This document shows, piece by piece, positions 28,040 through 63,855 of a stretch of DNA of 64,000 nucleotides. Position 1 is the stretch's first letter. The number at the start of each line of letters is the position of its first letter. Location: the NCBI RefSeq assembly GCF_030687835.1, contig NZ_CP117449.1, forward strand, positions 2,604,001-2,668,000, written 5' to 3'. Under the pieces are notes generated by a model. The model saw only the letters and a program-made list of their open reading frames with translations. It did not search any database and had not been told where the DNA came from. The stretch is from Pseudomonas hefeiensis (lineage in GTDB: Bacteria; Pseudomonadota; Gammaproteobacteria; Pseudomonadales; Pseudomonadaceae). Made by a program: the position numbers and the translations under genes.

Positions 28040-31000
28040 TCAAACCGCTCCGTGTGTAGCAATGGCCGTGAGACGCGCCGCCAATTGTTCGTGCAAGGCG
28101 CGTTGCTCAAGGATGGTCAGGTGTTGCGCTGTGATGACCTCGCGGGTCAACGGCCCACTGCTCAGGTCTTCCCACTGCGGGTCGGCGAAGTCAGCCTGGG
28201 CCAGGGTGTCGCTGGCCCACCAGACATGCACCGGGCAGTTCAACCGCACGGGCTTGAACGTGGCCAGCAGATGCTGCGTATGCTGCTGGTAGCGCAGCCG
28301 CGTTTGCAAATGCTCCCAACTGTCGCCATCGAGTTGCAAACCTTGCTGGCGTGCCCACTGCACCAGCTCCGGCAGGCGTGCCGCTGGGGGCAGGGCGTCC
28401 AGTTGCTCCAGCAAGGCGGTCATGATCGGCGGCGGCAACTGGCGCAACACGGTCTGGCTGTCCGGTGTCAGCGCTTGGGAGGCTGACTCCAGCAGCGCCT
28501 CGACACTGTCTTCTGGCGCCTGGTGCTGGTACTGCGAGTCGATGATACCGAGAAACGCCACTGCTTGGCCCTGGCTTTCCAGGCGAGCGGCCGCGGCAAT
28601 CGCCAGCAGACCTCCGAGGGAGAAGCCCAGCAGGTGATATGGGCCCTGTGGTTGCTGCTGGCGCAGGTGTTCGACATAGAGTGCGGCGAGGCTCTCGATA
28701 TCGCCCCCCAACGTTGTGCTGTCATCGCTCAGGTACGCCGCCTGCAAGCCCCACACATGCCAGGCCGACAGCGGCGCGAGCAGCGTGCGGTAATCCTGCA
28801 CGTGGCCGGTGGAAGGGTGGAAACAGAACAGATTGGCGGTTTGTCCTGCATCGACGGTTGGTGCCGACAACCGCACCAGCGGCGAGAGTTTGAGTTCGGC
28901 CTGCACCAATGCTGCAAACGCCGAGACGCTTGGAGCGTTGAACACCGCATTGACCGTCACCGGTGCCGACAGCGCGGTCTGCAAGCGACTGGCAAGTGTC
29001 ACCGCCGCCAGGGAGTGGCCGCCCAGCTCAAAAAAATCATCGTCGATGCCCACTCGCTCCAGGCCCAGCACCTGTGCCCAGACCTCGGCGAGCAGGGCTT
29101 CCAGCGGCGTGCGCGGCAAGGCACTGCCGACCGTGTCGAGGACTTTGTCAGCCCATTGCTGCAAGGTCTTGCGGTCGAGCTTGCCGTTGCCCATCAGTGG
29201 CAAGGCTTCGACGATCCGCAGGGTCGGCAGCATGTAGTCCGGCAAGCAATCCTGGGCCTGGCCATGCAGCCGGGCGACCGTGGTCGAATGCCCGGGCGCC
29301 AGGGTCATGAAGGCGAACAGTTGCTGGCCGAGCTCGCCTCTGGGGATGCATTCCACCGCGGCCTGGGCCACACCGGGAAGGCTGGTCAGTTGCGCCTGGA
29401 TCTCGTCGAGCTCCACGCGGAAACCACGGATTTTCACCTGACGGTCGGCACGCCCGGTGATTTCCAGGCTGCCGTCATGGCGATAGCGGGCCATGTCGCC
29501 GCTGCGATAGAGACGTTCGCCCGGCAAATGTGCCAGCTCGATAAAACGCCCGACGCTTTGTTGCGTGTCCAGGTAACCGCGGGCCAGTTGCGGGCCGGCG
29601 ATATACAGCTCGGCGCTTTGCCCGGGGGCGGCCAACGCTTGCTGCTCGTCGAACAGGTACAGGCGCATGCCGTTGAGACGGTCGCTGAGGGGCAGGCGGC
29701 GATAATCCATGGCCGGTTCGGTTTTGTGCATCACCACCCCAACGGTGGTCTCGGTCGGGCCGTAATGGTTGAAGACCGTTAGCGCCGGTGCAAGGCTGCG
29801 AATGCTTTGCAGCAGGCGCCGCGAGCAGCTTTCGCCACCGAGGATCAATTGCTTGCGCGGCAACACGGCAGCGCTTTGGGCGTGAATCAACCAGGCGTCG
29901 AGCAACGACGGCACGATCTTCAGGTGATCGATCGGGTGCTGCGCTTGCCAGGCGGCCCAGGCTTGGGCGTCCATGGCCGTTTCCTTGTCCAGCAAGTGCA
30001 ATTCGCCGCCGCTGAGCAGGGCCGGGAACAGCAACGTGTAGCCCAGGTCGGCCGCCAGTGAGGTGACCACTGCGCTGCGTTCGCCTGCGGCCAGTTGCAA
30101 GCGCCGGGATACGCTGGCGACATAACTGGCGAGCTGCCGATGCTCGACGATGACGCCTTTAGGCGTGCCTGTGCTGCCGGAAGTGAACAGCACGTAGGCC
30201 GCGTCCTGTGCCTGGATCTCGACGCTCATGGCAGTCGTTGGCGCTTGTTGCCAGGTGGCTTCATCGCGTAGGTCGAGGCTGCCGATGCCCGGCAACGCGG
30301 GGGCGCTGCCGGTCGAGCCGCTGAGTATGAAAGTCGGCTGGGCTTGTTGCAGGATCGCCAGTGAGCGTTGTGCCGGCTGGTGGACATCCAGGGGAACGAA
30401 CGCCGCGCCGCTCTTGAGCACGGCGAGCATGGCCAGGACCATCTGCGCTGAGCGATCCAGATACAACGCCACGCGATCTTCGCGACCCACGCCCTGGGCG
30501 CGCAGGTAATGCGCCAGTTGGTTGCTGCGCGCCTGCAGTTGGGCGTAGCTCAGTTGCCCGTTATGGTCGCGCAGGGCCAAGTGCTCGGGGAACTGCGCGG
30601 CACACGCATCGAAGCTCGCCGGCACACTGGTAAACGGCAGCGTTGCGACGTCGACTGGCGCCTGCAGGGCGGCCAGCGTTGCGGTGAAACTTGGCGCCTG
30701 CAATGACAGTTCGGCCAGCGGCTTGCCCGGGTTGGCGAGGGCATCGAGCAGCAGCGATTGGAATTGCTCCAGCAGCACCAGGGCGGCCTGTTCGCTGTAG
30801 CGGCCCGGCAGGTGGCAGAGGTTCAGGCGATAGCCGCCAGCGGTCGTTTCGGCCACCAGCAGCAGCTCCATGCCGGCGGGAATGGCCTGTGCGTCCAGCA
30901 CCGTGAGCGTCGACGCCATGCTGCCCAAGGTGTCGAGTCGCTCGGGTAACTGCCCACCCCACTGGAAGCCGTACTGCAAAGCCTCGGCCGGCAATGCAGC

Positions 31001-63400: not shown

Positions 63401-63855
63401 CGTTGCCACTGGCTGGCCGATGCTGTGCCCAGGTGCTGGACGGTCAGCACATCGACGCGGCCCTCCACCAGATCCAGCAAACCTTCGCAATAATCCGCCG
63501 GTGCGAGAATCAACGCCGGCTCGGCATCCACCACCACGTTGCGGACGCGGTCGAGGTGGCGCGGTTTACGCGACGGCGGTGGAAACAACGGTACGGCAAT
63601 CAGCCCAGCATAGAGGCAGGCACAGAAAGCGCGGGCGTAGTCGAGGCTGCTGGGTAGCATCAACAGCACACGATCGCCCGGTGCATAACGCGCTTGCAGC
63701 GCGGCCGCCAGGGACTGGGAGTGCTCGTGCAGTTGGGCAAAGGTCAGGGTTTCGCCGATGTTGACACCGTCCGGCAAGAAATGCAGGGCAGCACGCTGAG
63801 GGAAGTGCCGGGCGTTGGCTTCCAGCACCTCGATCCAATGTTTGAATGAAAACAT
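60419..63855 (-). CDS. Lipo-initiation protein: fatty acyl-AMP ligase, ACP, condensation domain; two frame-breaking insertions
   Basis: Restored, this is about 1142 residues. The FAAL activates a fatty acid (TSGSTGSPKGVEVRQRN, NWLPLYHDMGLIGG; DLGFMHQGQVVICGRLKDLLILNGRNLYPHDIE only after repair). It then has a carrier with GLDSIG and a starter condensation domain with HHIAFDG that would acylate residue 1. The frame is broken twice: a 7-bp tandem duplication CGACAAT at 62585-62598, and an extra C in CCCC at 62483-62486 (+ strand). Removing both restores one frame whose length is a multiple of three. As read, the ligase loses its C-terminal subdomain and the ACP-C part is out of frame. Start ATG 63855, 7 bp after the preceding stop. 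Confidence 0.88.
62585..62598. repeat. 7-bp tandem duplication breaking the FAAL frame
   Basis: CGACAATCGACAAT: two exact copies of CGACAAT. Deleting one copy rejoins FEARIVGSSEQYLRSGDLGF, the expected ligase sequence, in a single frame. Confidence 0.9.

What the first reader, a model, noticed from the sequence alone, without database searches (positions are those of the whole stretch)
28040..63855. Assembly line predicted to make an acylated octapeptide siderophore of the corrugatin type
Eight A domains in collinear order plus a FAAL-ACP starter and TE. My hand-read specificity codes give His-like, Dab, unknown basic (X), Ser, Ser (D), Asp, Dab, Asp. Hydroxylases associated with His and Asp would give one beta-OH-His and two beta-OH-Asp, a complete hexadentate iron-binding set. 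Corrugatin, ornicorrugatin and histicorrugatin are known lipopeptide siderophores of this general kind, differing at one position. X (code DSAELGTVDK) may be the variable position and could define a new member.
Basis: partly seen in the sequence, partly recalled or inferred. Interest (0 to 1): 0.75.

Follow-up and report, generated by a model that had tools for sequence, protein, structure and literature searches.

The report
Ornicorrugatin-type lipopeptide siderophore assembly line
A Pseudomonas gene cluster that should make the known iron-scavenging lipopeptide ornicorrugatin; in relatives, the domain that picks its third building block has been swapped or lost several times.

Summary
An eight-module NRPS with FAAL/carrier start and TE end lies on the minus strand at 63894-28040. 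It is an ornicorrugatin-type cluster of a Pseudomonas close to P. brassicacearum, not a new product: X has the same code in 21 of 23 relatives fetched and is most likely ornithine. A third hydroxylase, cut by the window edge, completes the set for one beta-OH-His and two beta-OH-Asp. Two genes are frame-broken here but open in the relatives read (23 of 23 and 16 of 16).

The interest lies in what X does elsewhere. In P. corrugata, maker of corrugatin (Dab in place of Orn), the third A domain is missing, leaving C-T with intact motifs; three other lineages lack it too, and the tree needs at least four changes. Some strains carry a Ser domain there, copied from their own next module. Corrugatin has three Dab but the line has two Dab domains, so module 3 is probably charged by a borrowed one. 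The paper searches made here showed none describing this.

The parts
63863..64000 (-). 3' end of a stand-alone TauD-family beta-hydroxylase (TauD_C); the rest lies beyond the window edge (to about 64840)
   Evidence: PF02668 hit G000:C1:2667875-2668741; 325-residue frame; 87-98% identical copies upstream of the FAAL in 22 of 23 relatives, four of them at the edge of the fetched stretch; in G031 the stretch ends before it
62362..63894 (-). FAAL, first part (starter acyl activation); frame broken before its C-terminal part
   Evidence: PF00501; FAAL and next part in one open frame in 23 of 23 relatives, not here
60419..62365 (-). FAAL C-terminal part, acyl carrier domain, starter condensation domain
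   Evidence: PF00550, PF00668; end conserved in relatives
59355..60335 (-). TauD_A, beta-hydroxylase beside the His module (IBH_His-like by position)
   Evidence: PF02668; 89-98% identical in 23 of 23 relatives
56181..59249 (-). Module 1: weakly matching C-like domain ('interface' domain, recalled term), A1 (His code DSALIAEVWK), carrier
   Evidence: best named homologues 93% in P. brassicacearum and P. ogarae
42176..56122 (-). Modules 2-5: C-A(Dab)-T, C-A(X)-T, C-A(Ser)-T, C-A(Ser)-T, terminal C-like domain, probably epimerase
49991..51454 (-). A3 domain (X, code DSAELGTVDK): the segment absent in P. corrugata, G314, a Massilia pair and P0350, and replaced by a Ser domain in some P. brassicacearum/P. 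ogarae
38318..42133 (-). Module 6: C-A(Asp)-T and start of a C-like (epimerase-like) domain; frame broken towards module 7
   Evidence: one open frame with the next part in 16 of 16 relatives where both were read
31879..38658 (-). Rest of the module 6 C-like domain, module 7 C-A(Dab)-T, C8, and TauD_B hydroxylase at 31963-32799
28040..31927 (-). Module 8: weakly matching C-like ('interface') domain, A8 (Asp), carrier, thioesterase
26392..28110 (-). PvdE-like cyclic-peptide export ABC transporter
   Evidence: TIGR01194 above cut-off
24749..25432 (+). FhuF-like ferric reductase, possibly for iron release from the siderophore
   Evidence: PF06276

Best explanation
The cluster makes ornicorrugatin or its near twin. 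The FAAL loads octanoate on the carrier; eight modules then add OH-His, Dab, Orn, Ser, Ser, OH-Asp, Dab and OH-Asp; the thioesterase releases the chain. Three Fe(II)/ketoglutarate hydroxylases make the ligands: TauD_A for His1 and TauD_B for Asp8 (each beside an interface-like domain), and the stand-alone TauD_C, by elimination, for Asp6. A PvdE-like exporter, a TonB receptor and a FhuF reductase serve traffic and iron release. Shown: domains, order, codes, neighbours. Inferred: residues, acyl chain, hydroxylase pairing, Orn at X. Position 3 is a replaceable slot: the A domain here is absent in P. corrugata, the corrugatin species, where another Dab domain, most simply A2 on the same protein, probably charges the orphan carrier.
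For: Domains and codes. The synthetase holding module 3 is 95% identical to a P. brassicacearum protein with the same four codes. P. brassicacearum DSM 13227 makes ornicorrugatin (PMC12971057, passages). Two basic modules share one code and X is the only other basic slot, so Orn falls to X; X also resembles the Orn code DVGEIGSIDK (recalled). TauD_B is present in 14 of 14 relatives with module 8 read as Asp and absent in 2 of 2 with His there; 7 were not covered. P. corrugata lacks A3: 7 of 7 protein clusters of that name among the 120 rows. G124, 99.6% identical to one of them over 2472 residues, carries His, Dab, none, Ser, Ser, Asp, Dab, Asp over two contigs. Corrugatin's printed formula C40H67N13O19 (PMC10628113 table) equals octanoyl + OH-His + 3 Dab + 2 Ser + 2 OH-Asp (hand arithmetic).
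Against: Two frame breaks in the FAAL and module 6/7 genes mean the line may be dead in this strain, if they are not assembly errors. The linear product is 36.02 heavier than the reported ornicorrugatin ion at m/z 1012.46, so two waters must be lost or the composition differs. The codes-to-residues key is recalled, not computed. That the Dab replaced by Orn is the one at position 3 is inferred; no paper I saw gives the residue order. No biochemistry shows A2 charging T3. Proteins named P. brassicacearum differ at slot 3 (X or Ser), so the species name alone does not fix the product.
Confidence: 0.88

Rival explanations
1. X is a new residue and the product is a new member of the corrugatin family.
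For: DSAELGTVDK is not an exact match to any code I recall; the codes were not run through a predictor.
Against: The same code stands in 21 of 23 relatives and 40 of 63 orthologues examined; a P. brassicacearum strain gives ornicorrugatin by MS (PMC12971057, passages).
Confidence: 0.06
2. The cluster is inactive here because the FAAL and module 6/7 genes are truly frameshifted.
For: Both joints are out of frame here, and in one open frame in 23 of 23 and 16 of 16 relatives.
Against: An outer-membrane efflux gene in the same window also looks frame-broken, which fits assembly error; the pieces stay collinear and 90-98% identical to the nearest relatives fetched.
Confidence: 0.3
3. In the A-less lineages module 3 is skipped, giving a heptapeptide, rather than charged by a borrowed A domain.
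For: Module skipping is known elsewhere (recalled).
Against: Corrugatin has eight residues including three Dab by its printed formula, one more Dab than the P. corrugata line has Dab domains; C3 keeps HHLVSDA in 5 of 5 A-less proteins read and T3 keeps GGHS in 8 of 8.
Confidence: 0.15
4. A stand-alone or foreign A domain elsewhere in the genome, not A2 or A7, charges the orphan T3.
For: Trans-acting A domains exist, e.g. CmnA-A1 for CmnI in capreomycin (PMC12400406, abstract).
Against: Two Dab domains are already in the line, A2 on the same protein; no genome-wide hunt for another Dab domain was made.
Confidence: 0.2

Closest known systems
Ornicorrugatin cluster (MIBiG BGC0003174, P. brassicacearum DSM 13227; PFLU3220 and 3222-3225 in SBW25)
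   Same: Same type of cluster by published description; the module 2-5 protein here is 95% identical to a P. brassicacearum one with the same codes.
   Different: Two frame breaks in this assembly; the A6 code has Ile where the relatives with that stretch read have Val or Leu. The MIBiG entry itself was not compared.
Corrugatin-species synthetase of P. corrugata
   Same: Same modules; G124 reads the same residues apart from slot 3.
   Different: No A domain in module 3; the product has Dab in place of Orn.
Histicorrugatin species P. thivervalensis DSM 13194
   Same: Same front half, including X.
   Different: Module 6-7 parts only about 50% identical, module 8 reads His, TauD_B missing, exporter 46% identical.
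Capreomycin CmnI, an A-less module charged by another module's A domain
   Same: Same logic as proposed for the A-less module 3.
   Different: Different family and product; here the A domain is missing within an otherwise standard module of a collinear line.

Membership tests
corrugatin-family lipopeptide siderophore cluster | FAAL and carrier with starter C domain | tested here: met
   (FAAL gene frame-broken here)
corrugatin-family lipopeptide siderophore cluster | Eight modules ending in a TE | tested here: met
corrugatin-family lipopeptide siderophore cluster | His, Dab, variable, Ser, Ser, Asp, Dab, Asp codes | tested here: met
   residue names recalled
corrugatin-family lipopeptide siderophore cluster | Hydroxylases for one His and two Asp | tested here: met
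   three TauD genes, one over the window edge; activity and subtype models not tested
ornicorrugatin | Orn at position 3 | tested here: inconclusive
   A3 present with the code of most orthologues read; Orn by elimination and likeness only
ornicorrugatin | Product mass | not testable with these tools
   needs LC-MS; predicted linear ion 1048.49, minus two waters 1012.47
corrugatin (strict) | No A3 domain, as in P. corrugata | tested here: not met
   A3 is present here
histicorrugatin | His code at module 8, no TauD_B, as in P. thivervalensis | tested here: not met
   A8 reads Asp and TauD_B is present

The most novel reading that the evidence does not exclude
Position 3 of this assembly line is a natural domain-exchange slot. 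Its A domain has been cut out, apparently four times over, leaving a working C-T module that borrows a Dab A domain, most simply the one next door; this is how corrugatin differs from ornicorrugatin. In other strains the slot has been overwritten by a copy of the neighbouring Ser domain, predicting an unseen Ser3 corrugatin.
Probability: 0.65. Interest if true: 0.6.

Novelty: new member of a known kind. Interest (0 to 1): 0.45.

Why it matters
The window adds one more ornicorrugatin-type cluster, which by itself is ordinary. The slot-3 pattern would explain at gene level how corrugatin and ornicorrugatin differ, offers natural examples of a cleanly missing A domain in a line whose product is known, and shows natural boundaries of use to NRPS engineers. 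A review says it remains to be tested whether corrugatin and ornicorrugatin differ in uptake specificity (PMC10393863, passages); strain-to-strain variation at slot 3 bears on that.

Tried and rejected
Rejected: X as a new residue that defines a member. Rejected: a frameshift between the starter module and TauD_A; the gene end there is conserved. Rejected: position 3 as the histicorrugatin difference. For G314, a draft whose module-5 A domain is itself split, and for P0350 collapse is less surely excluded.

Led nowhere: the genome-contig scan was swamped by generic A-domain motifs (best segments 29-45% identical), but it gave a way to P. thivervalensis, P. mediterranea and MIACH; the region-limited protein search listed proteins at 39-53% only; no epimerase model stood among the 25 NCBIfam rows printed per protein. 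Rows dropped: of the 120 hits listed I read 63 (59, 4 partial ones added); the other 57, generic NRPSs at about 33-43% identity, were not read. Partial proteins were left out of the trees, and only 3 of the 7 P. corrugata rows went into the tested tree. G389 shows an orthologous module-3 joint with a 4673-residue frame but no match to the module-1 protein at 1e-300; it was not followed. One search's output was cut in the middle; only its visible part and one search are used. Not done: antiSMASH, a substrate predictor, C-domain subtyping, models of the hydroxylase subtypes, comparison with the MIBiG entries, a genome-wide count of frame breaks.

Full report
What is there. The window is G000:C1:2604001-2668000 of a one-contig Pseudomonas genome of 6.45 Mb. 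On the minus strand, from 63894 to 28040, lie eight ORFs with FAAL, carrier, starter C, TauD, eight modules, a second TauD and a thioesterase. A PvdE-like exporter (TIGR01194 above cut-off) follows, with a FhuF-like reductase beyond. Upstream, over the window edge, are a third TauD gene and a divergent TonB receptor. A second PvdE-like exporter at 1.99 Mb near a TauD hit inside a 4534-residue frame suggests a pyoverdine locus as well; it was not examined.

Codes. Aligned to PheA positions 235-517 (checked), the window reads DSALIAEVWK, DIWELTADDK, DSAELGTVDK, DVWHFSLIDK, DVWHFSLIDK, DLTKIGHVGK, DIWELTADDK, DLTKIGHVGK. Naming these His, Dab, X, Ser, Ser, Asp, Dab, Asp rests on recalled codes. 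Support for His: the histicorrugatin type strain P. thivervalensis DSM 13194 repeats the module-1 code at module 8.

Relatives. The module-1 protein has a match at 1e-300 in 22 of 398 Pseudomonas genomes, this one included, and at 1e-250 in 4 of 21 further handles, two of which repeat genomes already found. I fetched stretches of 23 relatives. Module 3 reads DSAELGTVDK in 21 of 23; in the other two, G124 and G314, the A domain is missing. So X is the common state. Orn is inferred: the two Dab modules share one code, X is the only other basic slot, X resembles DVGEIGSIDK (recalled), and P. brassicacearum DSM 13227 makes ornicorrugatin (PMC12971057, passages). The clusters of SBW25, NFM421 and F113 were linked to ornicorrugatin before (PMC4528175, passages).

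Hydroxylases. The three TauD proteins are 40-42% identical to one another. TauD_A is present in 23 of 23 relatives and TauD_C in 22 of 23 (G031's stretch ends before it). TauD_B is present in 14 of 14 relatives whose module 8 was read as Asp and absent in 2 of 2 whose module 8 reads His (P. thivervalensis, MIACH); in 7 the stretch was not covered. This ties TauD_B to Asp8. TauD_A stands beside the His module; TauD_C is left for Asp6. The subtypes IBH_His, IBH_Asp and TBH_Asp are named in PMC12971057 (passages); I did not run their models. 'Interface domain' is a recalled term.

Frame breaks. FAAL and its continuation are in one open frame in 23 of 23 relatives, and the module 6 and module 7 parts in 16 of 16 where both were read; neither is so here. 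An efflux outer-membrane gene in the window also looks broken. Among relatives, the module 2-5 gene of G290 reads in two frames and the module-5 A domain of G314 in two, so such breaks are not confined to this assembly. Assembly error and real decay both remain open.

Slot 3. The module 2-5 protein was searched in full, and 63 of the 120 listed rows were read: DSAELGTVDK in 40, no A domain in 10, Ser in 5, DLKN[V/I]GSDVK in 4, DAAELGTVDK in 2, DFSDLGLIDK in 2. The 10 A-less rows are seven P. corrugata clusters, a pair (Massilia violaceinigra and a Pseudomonadota MAG) and P0350. The gap runs from the start of the A domain to the linker before T3. C3 keeps HHLVSDA in 5 of 5 A-less proteins read and T3 keeps GGHS in 8 of 8. 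Between P. corrugata and P. mediterranea C3 is 96% and T3 91% identical, against 93-98% for the other C-type and 92-99% for the other T domains, so T3 is the lowest but not decayed. On a quick tree (LG+G4, no mixture) of 24 rows built without the A3 columns, the A-less state needs four changes, four being forced by starred branches; one clade is rejected for P. corrugata plus G314 (p-AU 2e-6), for the Massilia pair plus P0350 (8e-5), and for the seven A-less rows tested together (1e-37). Against too firm a reading: these groups were chosen after an earlier tree; P0350 is a long branch whose place is unsure; the count does not tell loss from gain, so loss is the simpler reading, clearest for P. 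corrugata, which nests among A3 carriers; local recombination was not excluded. In P0242 the Ser domain at slot 3 is 98% identical to that protein's own A4 and 41% to the A3 here, with low identity to P0241 from about residue 1500 to 2100: a copy within the gene.

Corrugatin. Its formula in a review table is C40H67N13O19, with eight residues (PMC10628113, table row). By hand arithmetic this equals octanoyl, OH-His, three Dab, two Ser, two OH-Asp, and no other mix of those four residues with a saturated C8 chain fits. PMC4528175 says ornicorrugatin has Orn in place of a Dab of corrugatin; that it is the one at position 3 is my inference. G124, 99.6% identical to a P. corrugata protein over 2472 residues, carries His, Dab, none, Ser, Ser, Asp, Dab, Asp; its cluster is split over two contigs inside the Ser part, where P0274, from a 6.1-Mb contig, shows two Ser modules. 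Three Dab from two Dab domains calls for a borrowed A domain. An A domain serving an A-less module is known (CmnA-A1 for CmnI, PMC12400406, abstract), and natural A-domain substitution is argued for NRPSs (PMC7486941, abstract). I saw no paper that describes the A-less module of corrugatin in the listings of searches or the passages opened; most subscription papers are not held, and I did not see the 1998, 2008 and 2016 structure papers.

Mass. The linear product with Orn has [M+H]+ 1048.49; the ion reported for ornicorrugatin is 1012.46, two waters lower. Octanoyl, three OH groups and loss of two waters fits, as do five other mixes of the ones tried. The review's corrugatin formula is the linear form. 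Unexplained.

Judgement. The cluster is an ordinary, known kind.

Noticed in passing
window 222-11436: A type III secretion gene set (SctJ, SctL, SctN, SctQ, SctT, SctU) ending with a HrpF/HrpK1-like translocator gene; P. corrugata and P. mediterranea are reported to lack a T3SS (PMC4528175, abstract).
   Followed up: no
window 15607-17080 (-): NodT-type outer-membrane efflux gene that matches only the first 165 of 460 model positions in one frame; it looks frame-broken beside a full-length RND pump gene.
   Followed up: no
window 25484-26259: Inverted repeat with 145-nt arms, 92% complementary, and a 27-nt perfect inverted repeat between them, in the gap between the exporter and the FhuF gene.
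   Followed up: partly
P0279, P0283: Orthologues about 1000 residues shorter, with both ends matching and only one Ser module: a possible whole-module loss predicting a heptapeptide, or collapse of near-identical modules in assembly.
   Followed up: no
P0285, P0287, P0292, P0300 slot 3: Code DLKNVGSDVK or DLKNIGSDVK at slot 3, residue unknown to me.
   Followed up: no
window 38318-39000 and 42176-43500: C-like domains after both T5 and T6, each carrier with GGDS: two epimerase-like domains, while the review table counts one D residue (Ser) in corrugatin.
   Followed up: no
L106-L108 (P. thivervalensis), L145, L160, L161 (MIACH): The module 6-8 part of the line with the exporter is a different allele about 46-51% identical, as if swapped as a block after the module 2-5 gene.
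   Followed up: partly
G389:C1 near 4692696: An orthologous module-3 joint in a 4673-residue frame, in a genome without a module-1 protein match at 1e-300.
   Followed up: no
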